Shown here: piece by piece, positions 7,736 to 49,942 of the stretch
Layout: the number at the start of each line of letters is the position of its first letter
How positions within the stretch are numbered: position 1 is the first letter of the stretch
Assembly: GCF_017313765.1 (NCBI RefSeq)
Contig: NZ_JAFLNC010000002.1
Location: 806,001-870,000 of the forward strand
Direction of reading: 5' to 3'
Length of the DNA stretch: 64,000 nucleotides
Source: Sneathiella sedimenti
Lineage (GTDB): Bacteria > Pseudomonadota > Alphaproteobacteria > Sneathiellales > Sneathiellaceae
Notes under the pieces: generated by a model
Seen by the model: only the letters and a program-made list of their open reading frames with translations
Databases searched by the model: none
Told to the model about the DNA's origin: nothing
Translations under genes and position numbers: made by a program

Positions 7736-7752
7736 ATTTTTTATAACCTGTA

Positions 7753-7783: not shown

Positions 7784-7794
7784 AGTAAGGCACC

Positions 7795-8295: not shown

Positions 8296-8300
8296 CCGCG

Positions 8301-9134: not shown

Positions 9135-9143
9135 GGGGCCGTG

Positions 9144-10547: not shown

Positions 10548-10566
10548 GGAAGGGAAAGGCGCCAGA

Positions 10567-11199
10567 ATGCGACATTTCATGACAGGCGGTGTTTTTATCC
10601 TCGCAGCTTACGGGCTGTTGATCGGTTGCAATGGACCCGAACCCTCGGGGCGCCTCCCGCAGACACTTGCCGAAAATAGCCTCCAGAGCCAGAGCTACAG
10701 CCTTTCCTTTTATGAGAATGAACTGGATCGTTCTCTTACGGCGCGAAACGGGCAGACTTTATCCATGGTATTACAGGAGTTGATGCGGGACCCGCCGGGA
10801 TACATCCGGTTCCAGTCTCTGGGGGAACGTCCCACGGAACGGGACCTGTTCCGCCTGCTGGAGGACTCGGGACTCAATCGCTATAGCGCCATTGAGGTAG
10901 CGCCCGCCGTTCCGGCACCGGAGGCAGGGGGGCCGGCCCTTAAACTTGAGATGACATATTTTACTTATGCCTTTGGCGATTGCGGCGCGCATCTGCACCG
11001 CCGACTGATTGACCATGAAGCGTGGGGGACACCGGGCTTTGGCTGCGCCGTAAACCGCAACCGGCTAGTCAGCCTTGTTCGCCCGGGCAAAGCCGGCTCG
11101 GGTGGATATCTTGCCCCGCCGCTTGCCGGCCCGGAGGTGAAGGCCATCACCTCCTATCAGACCCGCCCGCCGACACCGTTTCCGCCCGCCAACAAATAG
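10567..11199 (+). CDS. cpaD: Pilus assembly lipoprotein CpaD
   Basis: The protein has 210 residues. A lipobox (LLIGC, Cys at about 22) marks an outer-membrane lipoprotein. The C-terminal half carries the CpaD hallmark, here TPGFGCAVNRNRLVSLVRP, where a conserved Cys and Asn precede a short hydrophobic patch. The N-terminal half is poorly conserved, as in the family. Its position directly after the secretin and before CpaE is the standard order. CpaD is needed for secretin stability or localisation in Caulobacter. Confidence 0.82.
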   Translation: MRHFMTGGVFILAAYGLLIGCNGPEPSGRLPQTLAENSLQSQSYSLSFYENELDRSLTARNGQTLSMVLQELMRDPPGYIRFQSLGERPTERDLFRLLEDSGLNRYSAIEVAPAVPAPEAGGPALKLEMTYFTYAFGDCGAHLHRRLIDHEAWGTPGFGCAVNRNRLVSLVRPGKAGSGGYLAPPLAGPEVKAITSYQTRPPTPFPPANK

Positions 11200-11213
11200 T
11201 CAGGATATCAACG

Positions 11214-12434: not shown

Positions 12435-12435
12435 C

Positions 12436-36489: not shown

Positions 36490-38757
36490 CTATGCTATAA
36501 ATCCGGCCCGGGAGATGGGCAGTTCGCGAAGGCGCTCCCCCGTACCTGCAAAAATCGCGTTGGCCAGCGCCGCCGCGATGGGCGGGGTGCCGGGCTCTCC
36601 AACCCCGCCGAGAAGGCGTCCGCTCGGCGCGAGATGAACCTCGATTTCCGGGCAGTTGGCGAGGCGGATCATTTCATAGTCGGGGAAGTTACTGTTGAGC
36701 ACCACCCCGTCCTCAATCTCAATCTCGCCATAGAGCGCCGCCGTGAGGCCGAAGACAATCCCGCTTTCCATCTGCGCTTTCACGGTGTCGGGATTAACGA
36801 CGGCCCCGCAGTCGATAACGCAATAGACTTTGTCCACGGTAATTTCCTTGTCGCCGTTTACCGTAATCTCTACCACCTGCCCAACGATGGAGGAAAAGGA
36901 TTCATGCAGCGCCACGCCGCGTGCCCGGCCTTGGTCAAGCGGTGTCGACCAGTTGCTGACCTTCGCAAGCTGTTTCAGCACATTGGCAAAATCGGGATGG
37001 TTCTCGAGATGGGCGAGGCGAAAGTCGACAGGGTCCGCCCGCGCGGCATAGGCCATTTCATCCATGAAGGATTCGGTGAAGAAGGCGTTGTAGGAATGAC
37101 CGACGCTGCGCCAGAAACCAACCTCAATCGGCAGCTTCACCGGCACATGATCGACAAGGCGGCTGGTGAACTCATAAGGGATATCCGCGGCGCCCTCGCT
37201 TGTCGTGTTGTCGGGGACGTCCATTGTCGCCCAGGGAAGAAGCCGCGCCGTGTAGGAACCCGACACCGACTGGCTGACGATCCGGTTCGCCCAGGCGGAT
37301 ATCCTGCCGTCCGACCCAAGCGTGCCTTCAAGCCGGCTGACGGCGGCAGGGCGGAAGATATCATGCTGGATATCATTTTCCCGGGTCCACAGAAGTTTGA
37401 CCGGGCGGTTCTTCATTTCCTTCGCGATTGCCACGGCCATGATCACCAGGTCAATTTCTAGCCGCCGGCCGAAGCCGCCGCCAAGCAAGGGCGTATGAAC
37501 AATGACATTCTCCGCCGGGACATCGGCGATTTTCTCGGCAAACCACTTAATCAGGGTCGGGACCTGGTTTGGCATCCAGATTTCAACACCAGTGTCGGTC
37601 ACCATTGCCGTGCAGTTCATCGGTTCCATACAGGCATGGGCAAGGAAGGGAACCTTGTAGACCGCCTTTACAGCGGATTGGGCCTCATCTATCGCCGCGC
37701 GCGCATCGCCGGTTTCCGCATAAATGCGGGAGTCCTCGCTCTCGAGATTTTCCTCCAGAAGGGTGAGGATGCCGCCCGAGGAAAATTCCTTGGCGGGACC
37801 GTCATTAAAGGTCGCGGGCAACGCCTCGACGGCTGTCTTGGCGCGCCAGAAACTATCAGCAATGACGGCAACGCCACTCTCGAACGGCACGACCTTAAGC
37901 ACGCCCGGCATATCCTTGACGGCCGACGCATCGTGGGAGGCGAGGGTCCCGCCGAGCACGGGGGAAAGCTTGACCGCCGCATGCACCATCCCGTCAAGCT
38001 CTATATCGACGCCAAATTCCGCGGTGCCATCGACCTTCGACGGGATATCAAGGCGTGGCTGCGGTGTGCCGATCAGGGTAAACTCGCTACTCTTTTTAAG
38101 AACGGGATCAAGGGAGACAGTCTCCGATGCAGCTAGTATCGCGAAGTCACCGAAACCACCCGACATCCCGCTGCCGCCGTGGGAAAGGACTCCGTTTGTG
38201 ACGCTGATCTCGGCAGGCGGTACATCCCAGGTGCGCGCCGCCGCCGCGACAAGCATCGCCTTTGCCGTAGCTCCGGCCTGACGCATGGGGAGCCAGGCAT
38301 CCCGCACGGAGCTGCTGCCGCCGGTTACCTGTACGCCGAGGAATTGCCCAAGCTTGGCCATTCCCCAGGCACCGATTGTATCCTCTCCCTCATGATGCTT
38401 GTCGGAAAAGGGCAACGCGTCCTTCATCACCGCAATATTGGCATATACATCCGCGACCGGGGCCTGCTCCACCACCAACTCGCTGAAATTTGCGTCCATT
38501 TCCTCCGCAACCAGCATGGCGAGCGCCGTATAGACGCCCTGTCCCATTTCGGAGCGGGGAATGGCAACCGTGACCAGGCCGTCCTTGTCCACCTTCACCC
38601 AGGCATTGAGCGCGACTTCACCTTCCATGGTCGTTGCGGTAAGGGCCGCGTTCGCGGGATCTCCATCACGAAGAAAGCCATATCCAACGGCGAGGCCACC
38701 GCCGACAAGTGCGCCGCCAACGATGAATTTACGCCTGGTCAAATTTAATTTAGTCAT
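36490..38757 (-). CDS. Molybdopterin-binding subunit, isoquinoline 1-oxidoreductase/aldehyde oxidase type (IorB-like)
   Basis: The protein has 755 residues. It starts with a Tat signal containing RRKFIVGG and a hydrophobic segment to about residue 35, as in the periplasmic IorB class. Molybdopterin-contact segments include [18 protein letters not shown] near 405 and PMNCTAMV near 370. The C-terminal [19 protein letters not shown] (about 710) carries the catalytic Glu. It overlaps the 2Fe-2S subunit stop by ATGA. The natural substrate (aldehyde or N-heterocycle) is unknown. No cytochrome c electron acceptor gene is adjacent, although family members often have one. Confidence 0.88.
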
Positions 38758-39218
38758 TCCTGCACCCCTCCCTGCAGGGCGGCGGCACGTTTGATCGCGC
38801 GCTTGATGCGCGGATATGTGCCGCAGCGACAGATGTTGGTAATACTGTCGGCAATGTCTTCGTCGCTCGGGTTGGAATTTTCCGCGAGAAAGGCGGAAAC
38901 CGCCATGATCATGCCGGACTGGCAATATCCACATTGTGGCACCTGCTCCTGGATCCAGGCGAGCTGTACCGGGTTCAACATCTCCCCGCTAATACCTTCG
39001 ATTGTCGTGATTTTGGTCCCCACGGCACCAGACACCGGGTAGCTGCAGGATCGGACGGCTTCCCCATCCACATGGACGGTGCAGGCACCGCAGGCGGCAA
39101 CGCCACAGCCGAATTTCGTGCCCTTGAGACCGATGGTATCGCGCAACACCCAAAGCAGGGGCGTGTCCTCTTCTACATCCACCTCATGTAGTTCGCTGTT
39201 GATATCAAGACGCAGCAT
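38754..39218 (-). CDS. 2Fe-2S subunit of the molybdenum hydroxylase (IorA-like)
   Basis: The protein has 154 residues. The plant-type cluster motif is [15 protein letters not shown] (Cys near 44, 49, 52) with a Cys near 64. The second, all-helical domain has [11 protein letters not shown] (about 99-109) and [17 protein letters not shown] (about 131-147). It passes electrons from the Mo site. GGGAGGGG immediately precedes the ATG at 39218. No signal peptide; it would be co-exported with the Tat-bearing partner. Confidence 0.92.
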
Positions 39219-39346
39219 CTTCCCCTCCCACATTCTGTCAGGATAGGAATTATCCCTGGTTCCTATATAGGGTGCTTTTCGGCTGCCCGGTAAAGGGAAA
39301 TATATTTTGTTCTTTCAGGGACCGCGCGGCAAAGTGATGGTTCGAG

Positions 39347-41152
39347 TCAGGGATAGTTTTCCTCAATCGCCTTGAGGAAGGCCGGACCGTACTTTTCCTG
39401 CTTGCTGCGGCCAACCCCCTGCAGCTCGCCAAAGGCGGTAAGCGACGTCGGTTTAAGCTGCGCCATCTCGATCAGTGTCTTGTCGTGAAAGATAACATAG
39501 GGCGGAACATTCTGCTCTTTTGCCAGATCGAGACGCACCGACTTGAGGTAATTGAACAGCGCCTCTTCCTGGTCGTTCCCGAAACTGCGTACCGTGCCGG
39601 ACGCAGACGTCCCTTTGCGCGAGCGGACGGGGGCCTTCTTGAGGTCGAGCCGTGTCTCTCCTTTAAGGATCGGACGGCAATTCTCGTTCAGGGAAAGGCT
39701 GCCATAGCCTTCGGTATCGACATTAAGCAACCCGAGTGCGAGAAGCTGCCGGAAGATCGACTGCCAGTCGGCGCGGTTAATGCCTTTGCCCATGCCATAG
39801 GTGCTCATGCGGTCATGGCCGAACTTCTTTATTTTGTCCGTGTCGGCACCGAGCAGAATATCGATGATGTGGCCCGCGCCGAACATCTCCCCACTCCGGT
39901 AAATGCAGGACAGCGCCATTTGGGCGGCTTCGGTGGCATCGAAAAGGGCCGGCGGCTCGAGGCAGTTATCGCAGTTGCCGCAGCTCTCCGGCGGGGATTC
40001 ACCGAAATATTCCAGCAAGAGGCGACGGCGACAAAGCGCGCTTTCACAAAACTGCAGGAGGGATTCCAGCTTGCCGCGGTCAAGTTTCTGCTGCTGCAGC
40101 GTCTTATCCGGGTTCTGCATCAATGATTTTAGTTTCGCCACATCCTGCAGCCCATAGGCAAGCCAGGCATTGGCAGGCAGGCCATCGCGCCCGGCGCGGC
40201 CCGTTTCCTGGTAATAGCTTTCCATGTTCTTCGGGAGATCGAGATGGGCAACGAAGCGGACATCCGGTTTGTCGATTCCCATCCCGAATGCGATGGTGGC
40301 GACAATAATGACGGCATCGTCTTTCAGGAATCGCGCCTGTGTCTCGCGTCGGACCTGCGGATCAAGCCCCGCGTGGTAGGGCAGGGCGACGCGTCCGGTG
40401 GCCGCGATTTTCTCCGCCACCTGCTCGACCTTGCGCCGGGACATACAATAGACAATGCCGGCATCGGTCGCATGTTCGCCCTTGATGAAGTTGAGAAGCT
40501 GGGTGACGCCATTCGTCTTGGCCGTCAGCCGGTAACGGATATTCGGCCGGTCGAACCCGGCGCGGAAAATCTTGCCATAGGAAAGCCCCAGCCGCTCGAT
40601 AATATCCTTTTCCGTTGGTGCATCGGCAGTTGCGGTGAGGGCGAGGCGCGGCACGGACGGGAATTTCTCGGCCAATATTTCAAGGCGCAGGTATTCGGGT
40701 CGGAAATCATGGCCCCACTGGGAGACACAATGCGCCTCGTCGATTGCGAACAGCGAAATATCGCACCGTTGCAGCAGATCGATAAAGCCGCCCGAAAAAA
40801 GTCTCTCCGGCGCGATATACAGCAGCTTGATCTCGCCGTTCAGAAGCGCAGTGCGGATGGTGGCCTGTTCTTCCATAGAATGAGCGGAATTCAGTGCGGC
40901 GGCAGCAACGCCAAGCTGTTGCAAGGCCTCGACCTGGTTCTGCATCAGCGCGATCAGCGGGGAAATGACAACTGCCGTCCCGTCCATACAGAGGGCGGGA
41001 ACCTGGTAACAGAGTGATTTTCCGCCGCCGGTGGGCATCAGCACAAGGGCATCGCCGCGGGCGATCACATGGTCGATAATCTGGGCTTGTTCCCCGCGAA
41101 AGGCAGGGTATCCGAAGATGGATGTAAGAATTTGGGACGGGTTACGCGACAT
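39347..41152 (-). CDS. recQ: ATP-dependent DNA helicase RecQ
   Basis: The protein has 601 residues, the normal RecQ length. Walker A is MPTGGGKSLCYQVPAL (about 39-54), the DEAH box is AIDEAHCVSQWGHDFRPEY (about 138-156), and RecQ zinc Cys residues occur in CESALCRRR and SCGNCDNC (about 366-395). A winged-helix domain and a C-terminal HRDC domain (about 525-601) follow. It acts in recombination repair and the RecF pathway. AAGGGGG precedes the ATG. It lies just downstream of the reb-linked HTH gene on the same strand. Confidence 0.97.
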   Translation of the reverse strand: MSRNPSQILTSIFGYPAFRGEQAQIIDHVIARGDALVLMPTGGGKSLCYQVPALCMDGTAVVISPLIALMQNQVEALQQLGVAAAALNSAHSMEEQATIRTALLNGEIKLLYIAPERLFSGGFIDLLQRCDISLFAIDEAHCVSQWGHDFRPEYLRLEILAEKFPSVPRLALTATADAPTEKDIIERLGLSYGKIFRAGFDRPNIRYRLTAKTNGVTQLLNFIKGEHATDAGIVYCMSRRKVEQVAEKIAATGRVALPYHAGLDPQVRRETQARFLKDDAVIIVATIAFGMGIDKPDVRFVAHLDLPKNMESYYQETGRAGRDGLPANAWLAYGLQDVAKLKSLMQNPDKTLQQQKLDRGKLESLLQFCESALCRRRLLLEYFGESPPESCGNCDNCLEPPALFDATEAAQMALSCIYRSGEMFGAGHIIDILLGADTDKIKKFGHDRMSTYGMGKGINRADWQSIFRQLLALGLLNVDTEGYGSLSLNENCRPILKGETRLDLKKAPVRSRKGTSASGTVRSFGNDQEEALFNYLKSVRLDLAKEQNVPPYVIFHDKTLIEMAQLKPTSLTAFGELQGVGRSKQEKYGPAFLKAIEENYP

Positions 41153-41209
41153 ACCCCCTTTATACAGTCATCGCCGCGCCAATCAACGCCGGAATGATGT
41201 TACGGGGCG

Positions 41210-41500
41210 CTAATCGCGATCTTCTGCTTTTGTCCAGCCGCGTTGCTTGAGTTGTTCCTTAAGGGCCTGGATCTCAAGCGCCGCCTCAGCGAGAAGCGCT
41301 TTCAGCCGCTGGTTTTCCTCATCAACCTTTTTCAGGCGGTTGATTTCCTCGGCGCCGGTCTTCTCGGCGCGCTTTTTCCAGCGGTATATGGAGGCCTTGG
41401 AAATGTCATATTGTTTGGCGAGATCTTCGACCGTCTGGCCATCTGCCAGTTCCTGAAGGATCATCTTGACCTCCTGCTGAGAATAATATTTGCGTTCCAT
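41210..41500 (-). CDS. Orphan IS3-OrfA-like helix-turn-helix protein beside the reb cluster
   Basis: The protein has 96 residues from the ATG at 41500 (GAGGACG upstream); a GTG at 41518 would add six. The N-terminal HTH (MERKYYSQQEVKMILQELAD, then DLAKQYDISKASIYRWKK) and a C-terminal leucine-rich coiled coil (INRLKKVDEENQRLKALLAE) resemble OrfA of IS3-family transposases. No OrfB with a DDE domain, no slippery frameshift site and no terminal repeats were found around it. It sits 94 bp after the last reb gene on the same strand, so a domesticated transcriptional regulator of the reb cluster is the favoured inference. Confidence 0.7.
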   Translation of the reverse strand: MERKYYSQQEVKMILQELADGQTVEDLAKQYDISKASIYRWKKRAEKTGAEEINRLKKVDEENQRLKALLAEAALEIQALKEQLKQRGWTKAEDRD

Positions 41501-41539
41501 GAGACGGGGCGTCCTCACCTTTAGGTTTCAATCAAGCCA

Positions 41540-41549
41540 TCAGGCCTGA
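41540..41549. repeat. Palindrome TCAGGCCTGA before the HTH gene
   Basis: A 10-bp perfect palindrome in the 94-bp space between the last reb gene and the HTH gene, about 40 bp upstream of the HTH start. It could be an operator; too short to exclude chance. Confidence 0.2.
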
Positions 41550-41612
41550 GTTTTCTTGTGTCGGATCAATTCTCCCTCACCCGGCGGCGCGGCGGTCGCA
41601 TATTGGTCCGTG

Positions 41613-41945
41613 TTATTGCTGCTTGCCGAGTTCATTGACGACGGCCTGGAGGGCGGCGAGATTTTCCGGGATGGCGCTACCGGCGATCAGTTCCTGCGAG
41701 GCCTTTGCCGCCGCCGCGGGATCGGTGCTCAGCAGCTGCTTGGAGGCTGCGATGGTAATGGCATTATGAATGGAGTAGCTGTGCTGCTGCTGGGAAATGA
41801 CATTCTGGAGTGCCAGCCCGATGGTGTGGGCCATCTGCTGATAGAGTATGGCCATGGCTTCCGCGGGGGCGTCGCCGAGAACGCTCAGATTCGTCTGCGC
41901 GATGGATCCTGTGATCTGGCTGTTTACATAAGACTCTGACGTCAT
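41613..41945 (-). CDS. RebB-family R-body protein, paralogue 1
   Basis: The protein has 110 residues. The family signature is clear: VNSQITGSIAQTNLSVLGDA, then APAEAMAILYQQMAHTIG and a QNVISQQQHSYSIHNAI segment. Nearly all predicted helix, with no signal peptide or transmembrane helix, as for known R-body subunits that polymerise in the cytoplasm into coiled ribbons. The C-terminal ASQELIAGSAIPENLAALQA block is the conserved family tail. AGGAGAG precedes the ATG. It is the last of seven tandem copies; 94 bp downstream is the HTH gene. Confidence 0.88.
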   Translation of the reverse strand: MTSESYVNSQITGSIAQTNLSVLGDAPAEAMAILYQQMAHTIGLALQNVISQQQHSYSIHNAITIAASKQLLSTDPAAAAKASQELIAGSAIPENLAALQAVVNELGKQQ

Positions 41946-42000
41946 TGCCGCTCTCCTGCTTGTCTTGTGGAAATTCCGGGGGTTGGTTGCTTATCGGGGG

Positions 42001-42399
42001 CTATTTCTTCATCGGCGTATGCGGCGGCACATGGGATGGCTGGGCCGTCGCCACATTTACGGGCGCCGCGGCATGCCTGCCATAATGATGGCGGGTCGCG
42101 GCGGGACTGCCCCTCTGCGATAACAACCCTGCAGTACTGCGCGCCGCCGAGGAGGACGATAACGCGAGGAGCGAGTTCAGGTTCTGCGCGGTCGAGGCGA
42201 GGCTGAGGCTGTACATATTCTGCTGGTTCGCGACGGCGTTCTGGATCGCCACCCCCACAGCCTGGGCCGTGGTCTGGTACAAGGTACCGAGTGATTGTGC
42301 GGGGGCAAGCCCGATATTCATCGTGTTTGCCTGGGTGATGGCATCCGTAATCTGGCTATTCACCGATTTGACATGTTCCGAATTTCTCTGCGCTGTCAT
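42001..42399 (-). CDS. RebB-family R-body protein, paralogue 2, with His/Pro-rich tail
   Basis: The protein has 132 residues. Residues about 12-75 follow the family (VNSQITDAITQANTMNIGLAPA, LYQTTAQAVGVAIQNAVANQ). The conserved C-terminal ATQEILSGN block of other copies is absent; instead it has a Ser/Ala stretch and a low-complexity tail rich in His, Pro and basic residues (ATRHHYGRHAAAPVNV and a lysine end). This divergence suggests a non-structural or capping role, or a degraded tail. GGATAAGG precedes the ATG. A large inverted repeat lies just upstream of it. Confidence 0.82.
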   Translation of the reverse strand: MTAQRNSEHVKSVNSQITDAITQANTMNIGLAPAQSLGTLYQTTAQAVGVAIQNAVANQQNMYSLSLASTAQNLNSLLALSSSSAARSTAGLLSQRGSPAATRHHYGRHAAAPVNVATAQPSHVPPHTPMKK

Positions 42400-42431
42400 G
42401 GCCTTATCCTGTTGTCATTGCTGCCGGCGGG

Positions 42432-42482
42432 TCGAATATTGCGCATATCCGGCCGGTAAGGGGCGGGCGGCGCAATATTCGA
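42432..42482 (-). promoter_or_regulatory. 13-bp perfect inverted repeat between two reb genes
   Basis: TCGAATATTGCGC (42432-42444) and GCGCAATATTCGA (42470-42482) are exact reverse complements separated by 25 bp. The loop includes the palindrome CCGGCCGG. It lies wholly within the 122-bp space between paralogues 3 and 2. In the leftward transcript it forms a long stem; no T-tract follows, so RNA stabilisation, processing or attenuation is more likely than simple termination. Confidence 0.6.
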
Positions 42483-42521
42483 TTTACCAATGGGAAGAGA
42501 TCACTTCCCGGATCGGCGGGG

Positions 42522-42878
42522 TTAGGTATTAAATCTCGGAGAGTTGGGACTGCTTTCCTTGAAACTCGCCAGCACGCCTTTCAGCGACGCCATGGTTTCC
42601 GCGACAGGATTTCCGCTCAGGATTTCCTGCGTGGCCTTGCCTTCGGCCGCCACATCAAGGGTGTAGAGCAGGCTCACAGCGCCTGTTACAACGGCAGAGT
42701 CGATAGAGTTCTTATGCTGCTGGTTAGCAACCATGTTCTGCATTGACATACCTGTTGACTGGGCCATCATCTGATAGAGCATGCCCATGGATTCCGCGGG
42801 GGCATCGCCCAGCACCTTGACGTTCGTTTGTGTGACAGCGTCTGTAATCTGGCTGTTCATCCAAGTGTTATCCGCCAT
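42522..42878 (-). CDS. RebB-family R-body protein, paralogue 3
   Basis: The protein has 118 residues and closely follows the family: MNSQITDAVTQTNVKVLGDA, APAESMGMLYQMMAQSTGMS, QNMVANQQHKNSIDSAV, and the tail ATQEILSGNPVAETMASLK. It is notably methionine-rich in the central helix (MGMLYQMM, MSMQNM). AAAGGAG lies 7-10 bp before the ATG. A structural ribbon subunit is likely; the assignment to a named RebA, B, C or D is not possible without alignment. Confidence 0.9.
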   Translation of the reverse strand: MADNTWMNSQITDAVTQTNVKVLGDAPAESMGMLYQMMAQSTGMSMQNMVANQQHKNSIDSAVVTGAVSLLYTLDVAAEGKATQEILSGNPVAETMASLKGVLASFKESSPNSPRFNT

Positions 42879-42918
42879 TTTTCAGCTCCTTTAGGGTTTA
42901 TTTATGAGGAATGTTAGA

Positions 42919-43239
42919 TCAGAACGCGCGCGCGGCGGCCTGAAGGGAGGAGAGGGCCTCGGCAACCGGGTTGCCGCCGAGAATCTCGGACGTTGCTTTC
43001 GCGTCGGTCGCGGTCGCCATGGCGTACAGGACATTCGTTCCCTGCGTGGTGACGGCGAGGTCTACGGTATTCGCTCCTTGCTGGTTCGATACCGCATTCT
43101 GCATGCTGGCGCCGACAACCTGGGCAAATACCTGATAGGCATTTGCCATGGCGATTGCGGGAGCATCCCCCAATACACCGACATTGGATTGGGTGACGGA
43201 ATCAGTAATCTGGGCATTGACTGGTGTATCCCCTGGCAT
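42919..43239 (-). CDS. RebB-family R-body protein, paralogue 4
   Basis: The protein has 106 residues, the shortest copy. Signature segments: VNAQITDSVTQSNVGVLGDA, APAIAMANAYQVFAQVVGAS, QNAVSNQQGANTVDLAV, then ATSEILGGNPVAEALSSLQA. It ends right after this block (AAARAF) and so represents a near-minimal unit of the family. AAAGGAG precedes the ATG. It is separated from its neighbours by 40 to 50 bp, each with its own ribosome site, as expected for subunits needed in different amounts. Confidence 0.9.
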   Translation of the reverse strand: MPGDTPVNAQITDSVTQSNVGVLGDAPAIAMANAYQVFAQVVGASMQNAVSNQQGANTVDLAVTTQGTNVLYAMATATDAKATSEILGGNPVAEALSSLQAAARAF

Positions 43240-43288
43240 GGGTCATTCTCCTTTAATAATCAGGCCTAAAATCCTGTTAGGTGATGTG

Positions 43289-43642
43289 TTAAGTCTGTGA
43301 CGTTTGTTCGGTTTGCGCTTTCTTTAATTCAACGATGATAGCCTTAAGCGCGGAGACTATTTCTGCGTTCACATTTCCCGAGAGGATCTCCTGCGTGGCT
43401 TTCGCTTCGACAGAGCTGTCCATGCTGTAAAGCATGGCGATCCCCTGGCTGACGATGGCATTGTCGATGGTGTTCATATTCTGCTGGTTCGCGACCGCGT
43501 TCTGCATGGACACACCGACGGCTTGCGCCATCATCTGGTAGACGGTTCCCATCGACTGGGCAGGGGCGCCGCCGATTACAACCAGGTTGGATTGTGTGAC
43601 GGCATCGGTAATTTGGCTGTTGACGGGTGTGTCGTTTGCCAT
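43289..43642 (-). CDS. RebB-family R-body protein, paralogue 5
   Basis: The protein has 117 residues from the ATG at 43642, preceded by AGAGGA. An upstream ATG at 43756 in the same frame would add 38 residues with no family similarity and was not used. The N-terminus MANDTPVNSQITDAVTQSNL is the most typical in the cluster. It continues APAQSMGTVYQMMAQAVGVS, QNAVANQQNMNTIDNAI and ATQEILSGNVNAEIVSALK, followed by a polar KKAQTEQTSQT end. It is first after a 443-bp gap and might have its own promoter. Confidence 0.92.
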   Translation of the reverse strand: MANDTPVNSQITDAVTQSNLVVIGGAPAQSMGTVYQMMAQAVGVSMQNAVANQQNMNTIDNAIVSQGIAMLYSMDSSVEAKATQEILSGNVNAEIVSALKAIIVELKKAQTEQTSQT

Positions 43643-44085
43643 TGATTGATCCTCTCTCGTTCCTGTCGTGGTCGATTGACTGGGTTTTCCTCTTTCAATG
43701 TGCTGAAGACGCTGTCGGTTGAGAAAATGTGACGCAGCCATGAGATTTTCTTCCATCGATTGCGAAAACTCTCACTCTTCCAGCGACGGAACTGTAACGC
43801 TGAAATAGGCGTCGGGCTTCAAGCGCGGTGCGTAGTATCGATATCTCGGTGCAAGTGAATGTTCTGTTTTTCGCAGAAGTCTGCGCTCTGGCGGGCATAT
43901 CGGCGGAAGGACAGGATCGGGAATCCCGCCCAGTCTGCCAGGACGAAAAAGGGACAGAGGTCAAAGGGGGTAGCTGCGCGTCCGTCGGCGCAGGAGGGTT
44001 TTACTTGTCGAGGCAACTGCCTGCAAAAAGACGAGTTAATCGCTCAAGGGGAGGAGCCGCAGCTCCTCCGCATGTGCGAGGTCGT
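43643..44085. other. Unusual 443-bp gap inside the reb cluster
   Basis: All other spaces in the cluster are 122 bp or less. Overlapping ORFs here on both strands (for example minus 43819-44016, 65 codons) lack ribosome sites and family similarity. It may carry an internal promoter for paralogues 5 to 1 or the remains of a lost gene. Apart from the hairpin at 44050-44069, nothing definite is seen. Confidence 0.4.
44050..44069 (-). terminator. Hairpin after reb paralogue 6
   Basis: GGAGGAGC-CGCA-GCTCCTCC is a perfect 8-bp stem with a 4-nt loop, 17 bp after the stop of paralogue 6 in the leftward direction. No T-tract follows. Partial termination or 3'-end protection of the upstream reb mRNA is plausible. 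Confidence 0.45.
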
Positions 44086-44538
44086 TTATCCGCCCATTTG
44101 TTTGACGATCTTGTCCATCGCAACCGCTGTTGCCGCGACGGCATCGGCAGTGATGCCGGCAATTTCCTGGCTGGTCTGTGCGGCAAGCGCGGCCCCGCCG
44201 GCACTGGTGACCGCGTTGAGGCTCGTCACCGCCGACTGGGTCTGGGCATTCAGGGCCTGGGTGATCGCGGCTGTTTGCGCGTTATAGGATTCCCCGATGG
44301 TTGCCTTCTGGGCGGAGATCGAGATGGCCTCTGCATTTTTAAGCGCGGTCAGGGCCGCCGCGCCGGCATTCGTGACGCTGTTCATCATGTTTGAGTTCGC
44401 CGTCGCGTTCTCCAGGGCTAGGCCGGAGGAATGGGCGGCAAACTGATATAGCAGGCCCATGGCGAACTGGGCTGAATCTTCGATTTTTGCGGGCGCCGTG
44501 GAGGAAGCACTCGTGTCGCCGGGGGAGGAGGTAGCCAT
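44086..44538 (-). CDS. Divergent RebB-family protein, paralogue 6, with long Ala/Gln-rich coiled region
   Basis: The protein has 150 residues. The N-terminal VNSQITDAVTQ segment is replaced by a Ser/Thr/Ala-rich stretch. The middle is recognisable (SAQFAMGLLYQFAAHSSGLALENATANSNMMNSV compared with the family LYQ..A..GLA.QNA..NQQ pattern). It is followed by about 80 residues of alanine-rich helix (ALNAQTQSAVTSLNAVTSAG) and ends MDKIVKQMGG. No strong ribosome site is seen. It resembles the larger accessory Reb proteins more than the small ribbon subunits; the function is not established. Confidence 0.75.
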   Translation of the reverse strand: MATSSPGDTSASSTAPAKIEDSAQFAMGLLYQFAAHSSGLALENATANSNMMNSVTNAGAAALTALKNAEAISISAQKATIGESYNAQTAAITQALNAQTQSAVTSLNAVTSAGGAALAAQTSQEIAGITADAVAATAVAMDKIVKQMGG

Positions 44539-44610
44539 GATTATGTATCCAGTATGGTTTGAGCTAAAATTTATTCTTTAAAAAATGTATATCTAAAGTT
44601 GCAGAAGTCC

Positions 44611-45066
44611 TTATCCGCTGCTGTCGGACGCTGTCGTGTCCGACGTCGCCGACCCGTCGGACTTGGCGGGACTGTCCCTGGTGGTTGAGGTGTTGTCGCC
44701 AGTTCCTGTTCCCGTGGATTGCGCAGAGTCTGTACCGTCAGTCGCCGCTGCCGCCCCTGCAGCGGGGTTGGTGGCGAGGGTCAGCAGCTTCTGCAGATAG
44801 TCGAGACGTTCCGCCGGGGTCAGTTTCTCTATCTGATCGGCCATACCAGTCCTGAGAAGCCCGCTGGTGCCAGCAGCTACGGCAGCGGCACCCAGAATAT
44901 TGAGATGCTGCTGATTGGTGACGGCATTTTGCGACGCCATACCCGCTGCATGTGCCAAATTAAGATACATGGTTGCCATTGACTTGGAAGTAGAACTACC
45001 AAGCAAGATTTCATTAGTTGCCATTATTGAGTTTTTAATCTGCTCGTCGCTTTGAGAGTTCGCCAT
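44611..45066 (-). CDS. RebB-family protein, paralogue 7, with acidic Ser/Thr-rich tail
   Basis: The protein has 151 residues and is first in transcription order. Residues 1-75 keep the family pattern (DEQIKNSIMATNEILLGSST, SMATMYLNLAHAAGMASQNAV, TNQQHLNILGAAAV). From about residue 100 it has a low-complexity tail rich in Asp, Ser, Thr and Gly (TDGTDSAQSTGTGTGDN, ending ATSDTTASDSSG). Disordered acidic tails are not usual in the small subunits. An AGGAA site lies 9 bp before the ATG. The extremely AT-rich promoter region lies directly upstream. Confidence 0.82.
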   Translation of the reverse strand: MANSQSDEQIKNSIMATNEILLGSSTSKSMATMYLNLAHAAGMASQNAVTNQQHLNILGAAAVAAGTSGLLRTGMADQIEKLTPAERLDYLQKLLTLATNPAAGAAAATDGTDSAQSTGTGTGDNTSTTRDSPAKSDGSATSDTTASDSSG

Positions 45067-45255
45067 TATTATATTCCTGTAATAAAAAAATAATTATATT
45101 TAATGAAATAAATATTAATAAATAAAATTCAATTTTAAATATTAAATTAATTGTTAATGTATTCATTTAATAAATAAAAATACTCAATAAGTAAATGGAT
45201 CATACACCCGTATTAAAGATATAAAAAAATAGAAATGCACTTTAAAAGTGATATT
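45067..45255. promoter_or_regulatory. Extremely AT-rich promoter region of the reb cluster
   Basis: About 190 bp composed almost entirely of A and T (runs of AATAAA and TTAA), in sharp contrast to the flanking DNA. It holds several TTAA tetramers but none spaced by exactly 7. It separates the leftward reb genes from the rightward sigma factor. Such DNA is a typical target of nucleoid silencers (H-NS-like or MucR) and suggests acquired, tightly silenced genes. Confidence 0.6.
45238..45250. promoter_or_regulatory. Dyad CACTTT-A-AAAGTG
   Basis: A 6-bp perfect inverted repeat at the edge of the AT-rich region, followed 5 bp later by TCACT. A candidate operator for a dimeric regulator of the reb or sigma gene. 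Confidence 0.3.
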
Positions 45256-45528
45256 TCACTCCCAAATGAAGAGACACAACGCGGGTGGTCCAGCTTGTAA
45301 GCCATCCTTAGTCAGTTTTGTTTTCCATAAATTCAAATCTTCTAGGGGGTCACTGTGAATCCGCTCAGGCAAGAATTCGTCTCCAAATCCAACCTTTCCA
45401 CGCTCCCATCCTGCCAACGTTCCAAGCGGCCAATACCCGTAAGTCTCTCCGTCACGACATTGCAGACTGAAATTGCTGGCCGGACAGAAGCGACACGGAA
45501 AGGCCCGGGAATGTCCGTCTCCCATCAT
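45256..45528 (-). CDS. Possible small protein antisense to the sigma-factor 5' end
   Basis: A 90-codon minus-strand frame that overlaps the first bases of the sigma gene. Its translation looks protein-like (ETYGYWPLGTLAGWERGKVG, FGDEFLPERIHSDPLEDL) and has a CRFC pair. Codon choice (TTA, CTA, TTG, GGA, CCA) is AT-leaning and unlike the chromosomal genes around it. There is no convincing ribosome site at its ATG pair (45528/45525). It could be a remnant of an acquired gene or a real reb-linked small protein. No family was recognised. Confidence 0.2.
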   Translation of the reverse strand: MMGDGHSRAFPCRFCPASNFSLQCRDGETYGYWPLGTLAGWERGKVGFGDEFLPERIHSDPLEDLNLWKTKLTKDGLQAGPPALCLFIWE

Positions 45529-46074
45529 CCGGAAAACACGAATTGTCCGGAGCATTTTTGGGCTGCGTGGCACTCTCATAAGGAGTATCTCATTAAGCTC
45601 AGCATGATCTGGATGAATGTCAGCGCGGCGGATGCGGAAGATGCCTTCAGCGACGCCACCATTCGTGCCTATGAGAAATATGCCGCCCATGCGCCGCAGA
45701 TCAGCAATGAGCGGGCCTGGTTTGCCCGGCTGCTCCACAATATCTGCATCGACAAGCACCGCGCCAACAAGCGTATCAAGAATCTTTATGACAGGGTGAA
45801 GGAAATAAGCGCCATTGATATGTCGGCGCTCGACACCCGGCAACAGACACCGGAAGGCAATCTCATGAATAGCGAACTCAGCCATCGGCTGCGGACCGCC
45901 ATCGAGAATCTTCCCGAACGGCTGAAGGCTCCGGTCATTCTGCGTCTTGTCCAGGGGGAGGAATATGACGAAATTGCCCGCAAACTCGGGATCTCGAATG
46001 ATAATGTCCGAAAAAGGGTGCAGCAGGGCCGCGGGCTCCTGCGGGAAAACCTGAAAGCCTTCCGTGACGGGTGA
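45511..46074 (+). CDS. ECF-type RNA polymerase sigma factor divergent from the reb genes
   Basis: The protein has 187 residues. Region 2 spans about residues 15-85 (FWAAWHSHKEYLIKLSMIWM, DAEDAFSDATIRAYEKY, ERAWFARLLHNICIDKHRANKR) and region 4 about 120-180 (LPERLKAPVILRLVQGEEYD, EIARKLGISNDNVRKRVQQGR). GGAAAGG is 7 bp before the ATG at 45511. An upstream GTG at 45355 also has a ribosome-like AGGGGG but would add 52 residues with no sigma similarity. No anti-sigma gene is adjacent. By position it is the prime candidate for activating the reb promoter. Confidence 0.87.
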   Translation: MSVSHHPENTNCPEHFWAAWHSHKEYLIKLSMIWMNVSAADAEDAFSDATIRAYEKYAAHAPQISNERAWFARLLHNICIDKHRANKRIKNLYDRVKEISAIDMSALDTRQQTPEGNLMNSELSHRLRTAIENLPERLKAPVILRLVQGEEYDEIARKLGISNDNVRKRVQQGRGLLRENLKAFRDG

Positions 46075-46196
46075 ACCCGAGGAAAGGGCGCAGAAATTTA
46101 TTTTTAGCTATCGACAGTGCCCCGCCAAATCGGGTAACGATAAGGTGAGTACTTCCGGCCTCGCGCCGTTCTCAAGTAGCTGGGGAGCTATTTTCA

Positions 46197-49190
46197 ATGA
46201 CAGAAGGTATCGTTCTGCGCGATGAACGCGCGGACACTTCGCCCATTGTCTCGGACGAAGTAAAATACACAACTTGCTATATGTGCGCCTGCCGCTGCGG
46301 GATAAAGGTGCATCTCAAAGACAACAAGATCCGTTATATTGAGGGAAATCCCGATCATCCGGTCAACAAGGGCGTGCTTTGCGCAAAAGGCTCTGCCGGG
46401 ATCATGCAGCAGAATTCGCCGGCCAAACTGCAGAAGCCGCTGCTCCGTGTTGGCGAGCGGGGCGAAGGAAAATTCAAGGAAATTGAATGGGAAGAGGCGC
46501 TTGGCCTTGCGGCGGGCTGGCTCATGGATGTGCGCGCGGATGATCCATCGAAGCTCGCCTTTTTTACCGGGCGGGACCAGTCGCAAAGCTTCACCGGATG
46601 GTGGGCCAAGCAATATGGCACCCGGAATTTTGCCGCCCATGGCGGTTTCTGCTCCGTCAATATGGCGGCGGCGGGTCTATACAGCATTGGCGGATCCTTT
46701 TGGGAGTTCGGCGAACCGGATTGGGACCTGACGAAATATTTCCTGATGTTCGGTGTCGCGGAGGATCATGACTCCAACCCGATCAAGATAGGTCTTGGCA
46801 AACTGAAAACCCGGGAGGATGCGAAATTCGTCTCCGTCAATCCTGTCCGGAGCGGTTATTCCGCCATTGCCGATGAATGGGTCGGTATCACGCCCGGCAC
46901 AGATGGCCTGTTCGTCATGGCGATTATTCATGAACTGCTGAATGCGGAGAAAATCGACTGGGAGTATCTGAAGCGCTACACCAATGCGTCCTGGCTCGTC
47001 ATTCAGGCGGAGGGTGAGGCGGACAACGGGCTTTTCGCGCGGGATGCGACCGGCACGGCCCTGATTGCGACCCCGTCGGGCAAGCTGCTTCCGAACAGTG
47101 ACCGGAAAGCCGATCCGGCGCTTGTCGGGACCTATACGCTTCCCTCCGGAAGGACGGCGGTTCCCGCGTTTCAGTTGATGGCGGCGCGGTATCTGGATGA
47201 GAAGTACTCTCCCGACGCTGTTGCGGACAAAACGGGGATCAAGGCGGCGACCATCCGGCGGATAGCGGCCGAGATAGCCGAAGTCGCCTTCGAGCAGGAA
47301 ATCACCCTCGATATCCCCTGGACAGACTGGGCAGGTCGACGCCAGGAGAAAATGATCGGCCGCCCGGTCTCCATGCATGCGATGCGCGGGATATCGGCGC
47401 ATTCCAACGGCTTTCATACCTGCCGCGCCATTCACCTGTTGCAGATGATCCTGGGTTCGATTGATGTGCCCGGCGGCTTCCGGCACAAGCCACCGTATCC
47501 GAAACCCTGTCCGCCGGGCCCGACCCCCGCAGGAAAGGAAACCCAGGCGAATACGCCGCTTGACGGTATGCCGCTCGGTTTTCCGAAGGGACCCGCGGAT
47601 TTGCTGGTGGATGACGCGGGGAACCCCAAACGGATCGACAAAGCCTATAGCTGGGAATATCCGCTTTCGGCTCATGGTCTGATGCATAGCGTGATCCATA
47701 ATGCCTGGGCGGGCGATCCGCAGGAAATCGATGTCCTGTTCATGTATATGGCCAATATGGGCTGGAACAGCTCGATGAATGTGCCGGACACGATCCGCTA
47801 TCTGACTGACAAGAACCCGGATGGCAGCTACAAAATTCCGAAAATCATCTATTCCGATGCCTATTCCTCTGAAACTGTGGCGTACGCGGACCTGGTGCTG
47901 CCGGATACGACCTATCTGGAACGCTGGGATTGCATTTCGCTGCTGGACCGGCCGATTTCCTCGGCCCATGGTGCCGCGGATGCCATACGCCAGCCCATCG
48001 TCACCCTTGATCGCGATGTCCGGCCGTTCCAGGATGTGTTGCTGGAACTTGGCGTAATGCTCAACCTTCCCGGCATCGCGGCGGAAGACGGATCGGCGCT
48101 CTATCCCGGCGGCTATGCGGAATATATGGTTCGTCATGAACGCACGCCCGATATCGGGCCGCTAGGTGGCTGGCGCGGTGAAGATGGCACCGGGCAGGGT
48201 CGCGGCACGCCCAATATGAAGCAACTGGATGCCTATATCGCCAATGGCTGTTTCTGGGAGAAGAAATTCACGCCCGAACAGTCCTATTACAAGTTCGCCA
48301 ACAAATCCTATCTGGACGAGGCTGTCCGTATGGGCTGGCTTGCCATGCCGGGGCAGGTGATGATGGAGATATATTCCGAAACACTGCAGAAATTCCGTCT
48401 TGCGGCACAAGGCTTTGGCGAACTGCAACCGCCCGACCATTTGCGCCCGCGTATTGATACCTTCTTCGATCCGATGCCGATCTGGTATTCCGCGCTTGAG
48501 GAAGAAGGTCTCCCGCAGGATGATTTCCCGCTTCATGCGGTGACCCAGCGGCCCATGCATATGTACCATAGTTGGGGCGGCCAGAATGCCTGGCTGCGCC
48601 AGATAACAGCGCGCAACCCGTTGTTTATACATGCGGAGACAGCGGCGGCGAAAGGCATCGCGGATGGGGACTGGCTCTGGGTCACGTCCCCGCACGGGCG
48701 GGTGAAGGCGCAGGCGAAGCTGATGCAGGGCGTCAACCCGCATACGGTCTGGACCTGGAACGCCATCGGCAAGCGAAAGGGTGCGTGGAACCTGAAGGAA
48801 GATGCGCCGGAGGCCACCAAGGGCTTTTTGCTGAACCATATCATTTCCCAACTGCTACCTGCGCGGGAGGATGGATATCGCTACTCCAACTCCGATCCGG
48901 TGACGGGGCAGGCCGCCTGGTACGACCTGCGTGTGAAAATCGAGAAATGCGCTGCCGATGAGTATGAGGAAACGGAACCCATGTTGCCACCGCAGGATCA
49001 TTTCGGCCTTCCTGAACCGACGGAACTGTTGCGATACGGTGCGGATCTCAAGGGCGAGGCGAGCGGCCTTGCGCCCGTTGCGATGAAGGACTGGATCGGC
49101 AACAGGGAGGAAAATGCCGGACAGAAGAGTGGGATCAGGCCCGGTCACGGCAATAAGCTGACCGATGTACCTGGGAAGGAAAAAGAATGA
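46197..49190 (+). CDS. soeA: Sulfite dehydrogenase (quinone), molybdoprotein subunit
   Basis: The protein has 997 residues, of the DMSO-reductase family. An N-terminal [4Fe-4S] site uses Cys27, Cys30, Cys34 and Cys62 (CYMCACRCG and VLCAKG). A GGFCSVN segment (Cys152) lies where the Mo ligand is expected, and a C-terminal cofactor domain has MYHSWGGQNAWLRQI. With the downstream subunits it matches SoeABC, the cytoplasm-facing, membrane-bound enzyme of Allochromatium and roseobacters that oxidises sulfite to sulfate and feeds quinone. No Tat signal is present, which agrees with SoeA and not with exported relatives. GGGGAG precedes the ATG. Confidence 0.85.
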   Translation: MTEGIVLRDERADTSPIVSDEVKYTTCYMCACRCGIKVHLKDNKIRYIEGNPDHPVNKGVLCAKGSAGIMQQNSPAKLQKPLLRVGERGEGKFKEIEWEEALGLAAGWLMDVRADDPSKLAFFTGRDQSQSFTGWWAKQYGTRNFAAHGGFCSVNMAAAGLYSIGGSFWEFGEPDWDLTKYFLMFGVAEDHDSNPIKIGLGKLKTREDAKFVSVNPVRSGYSAIADEWVGITPGTDGLFVMAIIHELLNAEKIDWEYLKRYTNASWLVIQAEGEADNGLFARDATGTALIATPSGKLLPNSDRKADPALVGTYTLPSGRTAVPAFQLMAARYLDEKYSPDAVADKTGIKAATIRRIAAEIAEVAFEQEITLDIPWTDWAGRRQEKMIGRPVSMHAMRGISAHSNGFHTCRAIHLLQMILGSIDVPGGFRHKPPYPKPCPPGPTPAGKETQANTPLDGMPLGFPKGPADLLVDDAGNPKRIDKAYSWEYPLSAHGLMHSVIHNAWAGDPQEIDVLFMYMANMGWNSSMNVPDTIRYLTDKNPDGSYKIPKIIYSDAYSSETVAYADLVLPDTTYLERWDCISLLDRPISSAHGAADAIRQPIVTLDRDVRPFQDVLLELGVMLNLPGIAAEDGSALYPGGYAEYMVRHERTPDIGPLGGWRGEDGTGQGRGTPNMKQLDAYIANGCFWEKKFTPEQSYYKFANKSYLDEAVRMGWLAMPGQVMMEIYSETLQKFRLAAQGFGELQPPDHLRPRIDTFFDPMPIWYSALEEEGLPQDDFPLHAVTQRPMHMYHSWGGQNAWLRQITARNPLFIHAETAAAKGIADGDWLWVTSPHGRVKAQAKLMQGVNPHTVWTWNAIGKRKGAWNLKEDAPEATKGFLLNHIISQLLPAREDGYRYSNSDPVTGQAAWYDLRVKIEKCAADEYEETEPMLPPQDHFGLPEPTELLRYGADLKGEASGLAPVAMKDWIGNREENAGQKSGIRPGHGNKLTDVPGKEKE

Positions 49191-49930
49191 CGTCACTTCC
49201 GAAAAATCCGCCGAAGAAGAAACTCGGCCTGGTGATCGATCTGGATATCTGCGTCGGATGTCATGCCTGTGCGGTGAATTGCAAGGAATGGAATTCCGGC
49301 GGTCATTCCGCTCCGATGACCGACACGGAGCCCTATGGCGCGGATCCGACCGGGGTCTGGTTTAACCGCATCCACAGTTTTGAGGTGGAGAACGAGGAAA
49401 CGGGCGGGCGTACGGTCCATTTCCCGAAAAGCTGCCTGCACTGTGACGATGCGCCCTGCGTGACGGTCTGCCCGACCGGCGCGTCCTACAAGCGGGAAGA
49501 AGACGGCATCGTTCTCGTCAATGCGGATCACTGCATCGGCTGCAAGCTCTGTTCCTGGGCGTGCCCCTATGGTGCACGGGAGTATGACGAGGATGCCGGG
49601 GTGATGAAGAAATGCACTTTGTGCGTCGACAAGATTTATAACCCCAACCTGCCCGAGGAATCCCGGGTTCCGGCCTGTGTCTCGACCTGTCCGGTGGGCG
49701 CGCGGTCCTTTGGTGATCTCGGCGATCCCGAGAGCGATGTGAGCAAGCTGGTCGCCAAGCGCGGCGGCTACGACCTGATGCCGGAGCAGGAATGCAAGCC
49801 CACCAATAAGTACCTTCCGCCGCGTCCCAAGAAAATCGGGCGTGAGGGGCAAGCGCCGGAACTCGTTCCGGTCGCTGACAGTTCCGCAGGCGTTATCGCC
49901 CGCTGGGTCGACAAGTTTCTATCTGCGTAA
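49187..49930 (+). CDS. soeB: Sulfite dehydrogenase, iron-sulfur subunit
   Basis: The protein has 247 residues with four ferredoxin-type Cys groups: CVGCHACAVNCKEWN (about 20-34), CLHCDDAPCVTVCPTGA (about 83-99), CIGCKLCSWACPYGA (about 115-129), and CTLC followed by CVSTCPVGA (about 141-175). It carries electrons from SoeA to the membrane subunit. Its start overlaps the soeA stop by 4 bp. Close to DmsB and PsrB in design; the Soe assignment rests on the operon and the SoeC-like third gene. Confidence 0.88.
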   Translation: MTSLPKNPPKKKLGLVIDLDICVGCHACAVNCKEWNSGGHSAPMTDTEPYGADPTGVWFNRIHSFEVENEETGGRTVHFPKSCLHCDDAPCVTVCPTGASYKREEDGIVLVNADHCIGCKLCSWACPYGAREYDEDAGVMKKCTLCVDKIYNPNLPEESRVPACVSTCPVGARSFGDLGDPESDVSKLVAKRGGYDLMPEQECKPTNKYLPPRPKKIGREGQAPELVPVADSSAGVIARWVDKFLSA

Positions 49931-49942
49931 CAAGAGGCCACG

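What the first reader, a model, noticed from the sequence alone, without database searches (positions are those of the whole stretch)
41613..45066. Seven-copy reb (R-body) locus in a probably free-living alphaproteobacterium
Seven consecutive minus-strand genes (106 to 151 residues) share the RebB-family pattern VNSQITDAVTQ.N, LYQ..AQ..G, QNAV.NQQ and ATQEILSGN, each mostly with its own ribosome site. R-bodies are coiled protein ribbons that unroll; in Caedibacter they deliver toxicity to Paramecium. Seven paralogues exceed the four-gene rebABCD model, so this cluster may encode a ribbon of different composition or function.
Basis: partly seen in the sequence, partly recalled or inferred. Interest (0 to 1): 0.85.

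Follow-up and report, generated by a model that had tools for sequence, protein, structure and literature searches.

The report
Seven-gene R-body locus of Sneathiella
This is a genuine but ordinary-sized gene cluster for R-bodies (coiled protein ribbons that some bacteria make), kept with the same seven genes across the genus Sneathiella, and comparison of relatives shows DNA switches and an RNA hairpin that probably control how the ribbon parts are made.

Summary
Seven consecutive minus-strand genes (41613-45066) are RebB-family paralogues: six pass Pfam PF11747's cut-off. The seventh, b, scores below it here, but its sister-genus orthologue scores 53 bits. The genome is a Sneathiella. Seven copies are not unusual: one to nine per genome are published (PMC3583457), so "exceeds the rebABCD model" is no evidence of a new ribbon.

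Relatives add detail. 21 of 23 other Sneathiella genomes have reb; the two without are about 65% complete. In 17 of 17 uncut loci the seven-gene order is the same and each position forms its own group in the tree, so the seven are old, separately maintained subunits (median dN/dS 0.03-0.19). A divergent ECF sigma gene adjoins. An ECF-type site, TCACA-N16-CGTC, precedes the c-g unit in 21 of 21 Sneathiella loci. With spacer 15 or 16 it occurs at 9 of 12 other ECF-linked reb loci against 3 of 86 unlinked. A covarying RNA hairpin with no Rfam match lies between e and f.

Verdict: new member of a known kind. Ribbon formation and use of the site are inferred.

The parts
44611..45066 (-). reb gene a, 151 aa: Reb core plus variable Ser/Thr/Asp-rich tail
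   Evidence: PF11747 42.6 bits; tail varies among species
44086..44538 (-). reb gene b, 150 aa: divergent Reb without the N-terminal QITD segment; very conserved, predicted single long helix
   Evidence: PF11747 19.7 bits, below cut-off; orthologues 53 bits in the sister genus, 27-32 bits in six congeners; AF2 helix 23-147, pLDDT 86.5, pTM 0.38
43289..43642 (-). reb gene c, 117 aa
   Evidence: PF11747 92.6 bits
42919..43239 (-). reb gene d, 106 aa
   Evidence: PF11747 80.7 bits; 73-98% identical in the 14 best loci
42522..42878 (-). reb gene e, 118 aa
   Evidence: PF11747 93.2 bits; AF2 helix 6-87, pLDDT 73.4, pTM 0.29
42001..42399 (-). reb gene f, 132 aa: Reb core plus variable tail, Pro/His-rich in the window's clade
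   Evidence: PF11747 74.6 bits; alignment
41613..41945 (-). reb gene g, 110 aa
   Evidence: PF11747 64.0 bits
43706..43732 (-). predicted ECF-type promoter of the c-g unit, TCACA-N16-CGTC(TT)
   Evidence: 21 of 21 Sneathiella loci; shuffles 0.0023 per locus; position; use by the sigma factor inferred
43761..43773 (-). conserved GAGAGTTTTCGCA box upstream of the promoter, possible activator site
   Evidence: alignment of upstream regions; function inferred
45238..45250 (-). near-palindrome CACTTTTAAAGTG upstream of a, possible operator
   Evidence: exact copy occurs once in the 3.58 Mb genome; exact in 10 of 18 Sneathiella loci, one mismatch in 6, two in L108, three in L110; absent (5 mismatches) in the sister genus
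42432..42482 (-). RNA hairpin in the e-f spacer, 13 bp stem, 25 nt loop
   Evidence: perfect inverted repeat; fold of the spacer z -4.0; 11 of 14 pairs with two-sided changes in 17 trimmed sequences
45508..46074 (+). divergent ECF sigma factor, 188 aa from ATG (ORF 239 aa from GTG)
   Evidence: Sigma70_r2, r4_2; sigma70-ECF 80.6 bits
41210..41500 (-). small HTH_Tnp_1 / IS3-OrfA-like DNA-binding protein with a leucine-zipper-like tail, downstream of g
   Evidence: PF01527 50.9 bits; found at this place in 19 of the 21 Sneathiella loci scanned and in the sister genus, not in L110 or the cut L112; regulatory role inferred

Best explanation
This is a reb locus that encodes an R-body, a coiled ribbon built of several different Reb subunits. 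Shown by sequence: seven Reb paralogues in a fixed order across Sneathiella, each position an old lineage under purifying selection, in two blocks (a-b and c-g), next to an ECF sigma gene. Inferred: under some stress or growth signal the ECF sigma turns on c-g from TCACA-N16-CGTC. The hairpin between e and f protects or processes the mRNA, so that c, d and e (likely ribbon subunits) are made in different amounts from f and g. a and b, expressed from their own promoter with a separate operator, act as accessory subunits such as initiators, caps or length control. The long helices pack into a ribbon that coils in the cell and extends when a predator or host takes up the cell.
For: PF11747 in six of seven, and in orthologues of the seventh. 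Same seven genes in the same order in 17 of 17 uncut loci, the window's included. Each position one side of a branch in a 218-row tree. Median dN/dS 0.03-0.19. Long single helices predicted. Promoter site 21 of 21; other ECF-linked reb loci 9 of 12 against 3 of 86 unlinked. Seven of the ten or so more distant reb-linked ECFs score 141-167 bits against the Sneathiella ECF model (L076, L124, L125, L126, L134, L156, L157), while the two other matches in the window's genome score 65 and 25. Hairpin covariation. Precedents: an ECF sigma (FecI2) controls rebP1P2 in P. aeruginosa (PMC8322103, passages). In Azorhizobium rebAZC3, rebAZC4 and either rebAZC1 or rebAZC2 are needed for R-bodies (PMC5527310, abstract and passages), so Reb copies are not freely interchangeable.
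Against: No paper on R-bodies or reb in Sneathiella was found, so no ribbon is on record. The a-b unit lacks the ECF site in Sneathiella. The strict motif failed in the first two new ECF-linked loci (Ruegeria, Burkholderia: 0 of 2), which have a TCACG variant instead. Four reb-linked ECFs score low against the Sneathiella model: L050 92, L158 72, Ruegeria 52, Burkholderia 38, the last two below the window genome's own paralogue (65), so one sigma clade for all is not shown. Six other TCACA-N15-17-CGTCTT sites in the genome were not examined. Branch support for position c is only 25. RNAalifold on the untrimmed e-f spacers found no pairs. One locus, L107, lacks the hairpin, and the fold of the corresponding sister-genus spacer is unremarkable (z -1.7). 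AF2 models have low pTM.
Confidence: 0.8

Rival explanations
1. Redundant copies: the seven genes are recent or homogenising duplicates that make one interchangeable subunit, and the number is a matter of dosage.
For: Copy number varies widely across bacteria (PMC3583457). The sister genus has eight, at least two of them e-like. In Azorhizobium two of four copies can replace each other (PMC5527310, passages).
Against: Each position is its own group across the genus and the sister genus shares several of them, so there is no homogenisation. None of 17 uncut loci has lost or gained a copy. Strength of purifying selection differs by position.
Confidence: 0.1
2. Domesticated relic: the cluster no longer makes R-bodies and survives as a stress-induced helical protein set with another use.
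For: a, b and f have diverged; b lost the QITD segment. No report of R-bodies in the genus found.
Against: c, d, e and g keep the family motifs and strong purifying selection. The regulatory sites are kept in register across the genus.
Confidence: 0.1
3. The TCACA-N16-CGTC element is a binding site for something other than the neighbouring ECF sigma, for example the HTH protein, or serves a more general sigma factor.
For: The published consensus TGTCACA-n16-CGTC belongs to ECF41 (PMC3426412, passages), whose C-terminal extension this sigma lacks. Three unlinked loci also carry a site upstream of a reb gene (L066, L095, L113). Six further copies of the CGTCTT form lie elsewhere in the genome.
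Against: The association with ECF linkage (9 of 12 against 3 of 86) and the 15-16 nt spacing.
Confidence: 0.2

Closest known systems
Caedibacter taeniospiralis pKAP298 reb locus (rebA, rebB, rebC, rebD)
   Same: RebB-family small proteins in a tight cluster; the three annotated pKAP298 Rebs match the same model
   Different: Seven Rebs instead of three homologous ones; the Caedibacter proteins fall outside the seven Sneathiella groups; here a large chromosomal-type contig, genus-wide, with an ECF sigma gene
Pseudomonas aeruginosa PA14 reb cluster (rebP1P2, rebD, rapA, fecI2, rcgA)
   Same: Reb genes next to an ECF-type sigma factor that controls them (PMC8322103, passages)
   Different: Two RebP plus RebD there. 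PA14 sequences were not compared here, so presence of rcgA or rapA homologues is untested; an HTH_Tnp_1-type protein is in the locus here
Azorhizobium caulinodans rebAZC1-4 operon
   Same: Several Rebs with unequal roles under stringent transcriptional control (PMC5527310, abstract and passages)
   Different: PraR and the Crp-Fnr activator RebR there; an ECF sigma, a CACTTTTAAAGTG box and an intercistronic hairpin here
Thalassospira reb loci (L076; the unnamed L124, L125, L134, L157, one genus, have the same layout)
   Same: ECF gene at the head of a 7-9 gene reb array and TCACA-N15-CGTC sites before several reb genes
   Different: ECF transcribed in the same direction as reb and spacer 15 instead of 16; arrays not compared gene by gene

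Membership tests
Reb / R-body (PF11747) | RebB domain over the curated cut-off | tested here: met
   6 of 7 over 24 bits; b 19.7, orthologues of b over it
Reb / R-body (PF11747) | At least 3 reb genes in a cluster (criterion used in PMC13430693) | tested here: met
   seven within 3.5 kb
Reb / R-body (PF11747) | QITD and NAV..QQ signature motifs (PMC13430693) | tested here: met
   QIT in c-g (QITD in c, d, e, f; QITG in g); QN...(N/Q)QQ in a and c-g; neither in b
Reb / R-body (PF11747) | Helical, cysteine rare and never paired (PMC13430693) | tested here: met
   AF2 of e and b only; no cysteine in any of the seven
Reb / R-body (PF11747) | SDS-insoluble coiled ribbon that extends | not testable with these tools
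   needs electron microscopy
Reb / R-body (PF11747) | Killing or harm to a eukaryote | not testable with these tools
Raymann Group 2 synteny | Sigma factor gene in the reb locus (HP2.3) | tested here: met
   ECF 45508-46074
Raymann Group 2 synteny | HP2.1 and HP2.2 (205-220 aa) and a Crp-type regulator in the locus | tested here: inconclusive
   none recognised by eye between the ECF gene and RecQ; the HP2 sequences themselves were not at hand
ECF41 sigma factors | Target promoter TGTCACA-n16-CGTC (PMC3426412) | tested here: met
   TCACA-N16-CGTC, 21 of 21; the window copy reads CGTCACA, one base off TGTCACA; that this sigma uses it is not shown
ECF41 sigma factors | Fused C-terminal regulatory extension | tested here: not met
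   188 aa; region 4 match ends at residue 180

The most novel reading that the evidence does not exclude
The Sneathiella R-body is an obligate heteropolymer of at least five non-interchangeable Reb subunits, with its stoichiometry set by a conserved intercistronic RNA hairpin. ECF-linked R-bodies form a distinct, widely shared regulatory class, switched on through TCACA-N15/16-CGTC promoters. In this genus R-bodies are a core trait rather than a patchy killer trait.
Probability: 0.4. Interest if true: 0.62.

Novelty: new member of a known kind. Interest (0 to 1): 0.42.

Why it matters
R-bodies are known from many genomes, but their control and subunit roles are known in few. This locus gives a genus in which the whole system is fixed, with predicted sites (promoter, operator, hairpin) precise enough to test by transcript mapping and deletion. 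The promoter signature offers a simple way to predict which other ECF-linked R-bodies are controlled alike.

Tried and rejected
Copy number as evidence of novelty: rejected, published range one to nine (PMC3583457), and 1 to 11 matches in other reb-bearing alphaproteobacteria.

b as a non-Reb gene: rejected after the sister-genus orthologue, which keeps VNEQTTDAVTQ, scored 53 bits. b as the Pro-rich, HP1.3-like type: ten such proteins were aligned; most keep VNSQIVD-like starts and Pro-rich tails, unlike b. No profile comparison was run, and which published group (S1-S4) a and b belong to was not tested.

Mobile or phage island: not favoured. GC of the reb genes is like the flanks, apart from an AT-rich spacer at 45000-45499; a RecQ-like gene and oxidoreductase genes (named by my reading) adjoin; no tRNA in the window; no known RNA family in 38000-50000. 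No search for integrases or islands was made.

Solved structure: none; the one phmmer match (E 0.035) is to an unrelated carboxylase subunit. Fold search was not run because pTM was 0.29 and 0.38.

Sigma-70 promoters and intrinsic terminators: no more than in shuffles (4 against 3.4; 3 against 5.5).

Extra TCACA..CGTC sites before f in L037, L038, L039, L107 and L108 lie in the e-f spacer, where TCACA is often part of the hairpin stem; treated as doubtful.

Remnant of the aminopeptidase gene in the short-gap species: none beyond two 16-residue matches at E 0.8-0.9 in L035.

Motif tests. First (note): strict form 0 of 2 linked, 0 of 5 unlinked. The plan named two genome draws; the first gave no new locus, the second two, so I added five of the 17 plasmid records, a departure from the plan. 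Both linked loci were among those five. Second (note): all six new genomes were fetched; strict form 3 of 3 linked, 0 of 2 unlinked; the sixth, L161, had no reb hit of 30 bits and was not counted. In the pooled count L135 was left out for the same reason. The unlinked set holds many near-identical Xanthomonas and Stenotrophomonas loci, and some contigs are cut so that an ECF gene could be missed. Sneathiella loci were kept out of the pooled count.

Hairpin. RNAalifold on the 20 whole spacers gave no pairs; the left arms of the two groups are out of register there. Trimmed hairpins gave 14 pairs, but trimming leans towards the structure, and L033, L035 and L107 were left out (17 of 20). In a separate 12-bp scan of all 20 spacers 18 had 12 pairs, L036 11 and L107 10; of 60 shuffles each, none reached the observed value in 14 loci, 1 in L032, L110, L037 and L108, 5 in L036 and 44 in L107.
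Full report
WHAT IS THERE. Seven ORFs on the minus strand between 45066 and 41613 (a-g) are RebB-family paralogues. Six pass the PF11747 cut-off of 24 bits: a 42.6, c 92.6, d 80.7, e 93.2, f 74.6, g 64.0. b scores 19.7. Its orthologue in the sister genus scores 53.1 and still has the N-terminal VNEQTTDAVTQ segment that b has lost, and b genes of six congeners score 27-32. So b is a divergent Reb. The genome has one reb locus. A divergent ECF sigma gene lies at 45508-46074 on the plus strand. A small HTH_Tnp_1-type gene (41500-41210) follows g, then a RecQ-like gene (named by my reading).

ORGANISM AND SPREAD. The closest loci are from Sneathiella. Of 23 other genomes of the genus, 21 have PF11747 matches; the two without are 65 and 66% complete. 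In an even draw of the class 17 of 387 genomes had a match, six of them Sneathiella including the window's own; match counts in the other eleven were 11, 6, 6, 6, 1, 2, 7, 3, 6, 4 and 7. A second, overlapping draw gave 26 of 359, eight of them Sneathiella. A draw from the phylum gave 13 of 397, one from the class of G708 4 of 370, one from the order of G357 1 of 16. So reb is patchy in general but near-universal in this genus, and seven copies is within the normal range.

FIXED SEVEN-POSITION ORDER. In all 17 uncut loci (the window's included) the order is ECF (divergent), a, b, gap, c, d, e, f, g; cut loci are consistent with it. In a tree of 218 Reb domains (219 collected; L110 b fell at the score limit and was dropped) each of the seven positions is one side of a branch. 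Support (SH-aLRT): a 95, b 99, c 25, d 99, e 92, f 94, g 92. The tree rests on 90 columns and has long branches, one of them L034 a. Sister-genus copies fall nearest to particular positions, for example d, e and g. Among eight close loci the median dN/dS is a 0.11, b 0.05, c 0.08, d 0.04, e 0.03, f 0.19, g 0.03, from 19 to 28 usable pairs of 28; dS is near saturation, so these are rough. a and f have variable tails; b is conserved over nearly its whole length.

TWO UNITS. The gap between b and c is 443 bp in the window but 940-962 bp in eight loci, where it holds an opposite-strand Peptidase_M24 gene (245-280 aa ORFs; PF00557), which I read as a methionine aminopeptidase. Each of these eight genomes also has another M24 gene of 274-298 aa, presumably the housekeeping enzyme. 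So a-b and c-g are separate units at least in those species. An inverted repeat follows b (44040-44079).

PROMOTER. Upstream of c, TCACA-N16-CGTC occurs in 21 of 21 Sneathiella loci with that region; dinucleotide shuffles give 0.0023 per locus. One further locus, L132, also has it. The published ECF41 consensus is TGTCACA-n16-CGTC (PMC3426412, passages read), but this sigma lacks the ECF41 extension. In the sister genus, where b and c are 69 bp apart, a site lies 76 bp before a. Outside Sneathiella, reb loci with a related ECF gene within 6 kb carry TCACA-N15/16-CGTC upstream of a reb gene in 9 of 12 cases, against 3 of 86 unlinked loci. The rule was set after seeing Sneathiella and the first Thalassospira-like loci, four or five of the nine are from one genus, and the unlinked set holds many near-copies, so the p-value of 2.8e-8 overstates the case. 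In two tests fixed beforehand on new loci the strict form scored 0 of 2 linked and 0 of 5 unlinked, then 3 of 3 linked and 0 of 2 unlinked (two of the three linked in genera not seen before). The two failures (Ruegeria, Burkholderia) show TCACG-N15-CGT(C/T) before two reb genes each, a post hoc observation; with that form the pooled count is 11 of 12 against 5 of 86. Scores of reb-linked ECFs against the Sneathiella model: sister genus 303; L076, L124, L125, L134, L126 141-167; L156 157, L157 163; L050 92, L158 72, Ruegeria 52, Burkholderia 38. The two other matches in the window's genome score 65 and 25. So a close ECF relative marks several genera, not all.

OPERATOR. Upstream of a, CACTTTTAAAGTG is exact in 10 of 18 Sneathiella loci and within one mismatch in 16 of 18; it is absent in the sister genus. 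It occurs exactly once in the 3.58 Mb genome, with two other places at one mismatch. Its binder is unknown.

RNA HAIRPIN. The e-f spacer holds a stem of 11-16 bp in 19 of 20 loci; L107 lacks it. The stem sequence differs between two groups of loci but still pairs: 11 of 14 pairs show changes on both sides in 17 trimmed sequences. The window copy is 42432-42482; the spacer folds with z -4.0. RNAalifold on the untrimmed alignment found nothing. The corresponding sister-genus spacer folds with z -1.7. Rfam has no match over gathering score in the window stretch or in four relatives. No U-tract follows in the window, so a stabiliser or processing site is more likely than a terminator (inference).

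HOW IT PROBABLY WORKS. See Best explanation. Sequence shows the gene set, order, selection and conserved sites. That the sigma uses the site, that the hairpin sets stoichiometry, and that a ribbon forms are inferences. Precedents: FecI2-dependent rebP1P2 in P. aeruginosa PA14 (PMC8322103, passages) and unequal need for Rebs in Azorhizobium (PMC5527310, abstract and passages).

NOVELTY. A new member of the R-body kind. For the promoter signature I found no report in what I could see: the 2026 survey (PMC13430693: outline, Results, first part of Discussion, term search) has no occurrence of 'promoter' or 'Sneathiella' in its main text. The PA14 paper has no occurrence of 'motif' or 'consensus'. 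The passages on reb in the Pf-5 iron paper give none (PMC3377617). Searches for Sneathiella with R-body or reb found nothing, and those on FecI2/reb and reb/ECF terms listed no title or abstract start that describes such a site. Subscription papers and supplementary files were not searchable.

Noticed in passing
L034 8628-9470, L036 8657-9445, L037 5007-5762, L038 8657-9394, L106-L109 (gap between b and c): An opposite-strand Peptidase_M24 gene (by my reading a methionine aminopeptidase) sits inside the reb locus of eight Sneathiella loci; the window's own clade lacks it. It might trim Reb N-termini; no paper with both R-body and methionine aminopeptidase was found.
   Followed up: partly
window 45067-45250: Very AT-rich spacer (35% GC in 45000-45499 against 53-61% around) upstream of a.
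   Followed up: no
L050 5340-7631: In a Candidatus Anammoxibacter reb locus the ECF sigma is fused to TPR repeats (763 aa). A GTCACA-N15-CGTCT site lies 363 bp before the first reb, just outside my limit.
   Followed up: no
L113 (G052) 6939-12970: A reb locus with nine hits over 30 bits (eleven in all) and two TCACA-N15/16-CGTC sites but no related ECF gene within the 18 kb fetched.
   Followed up: no
L076, L124, L126, L111 ECF genes: These reb-linked ECF ORFs carry about 160-270 residues before sigma region 2; whether this extension is real or an ORF artefact is open.
   Followed up: no
window 42492-42509: A second, shorter stem (GGGAAG..CTTCCC here, GAGAAG..CTTCTC in close relatives) precedes the e-f hairpin in the window's clade.
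   Followed up: no
window 46197-50893: Molybdopterin oxidoreductase-, iron-sulphur- and membrane-anchor-like genes (named by my reading) lie beyond the ECF gene, unrelated in appearance to reb; the first stays adjacent in L026, L027, L030, L031, L032, L034 and L035.
   Followed up: no
window 60485-60512: One of six other TCACA-N15-17-CGTCTT matches in the genome lies in the window; whether these mark further genes of the same sigma was not examined.
   Followed up: no
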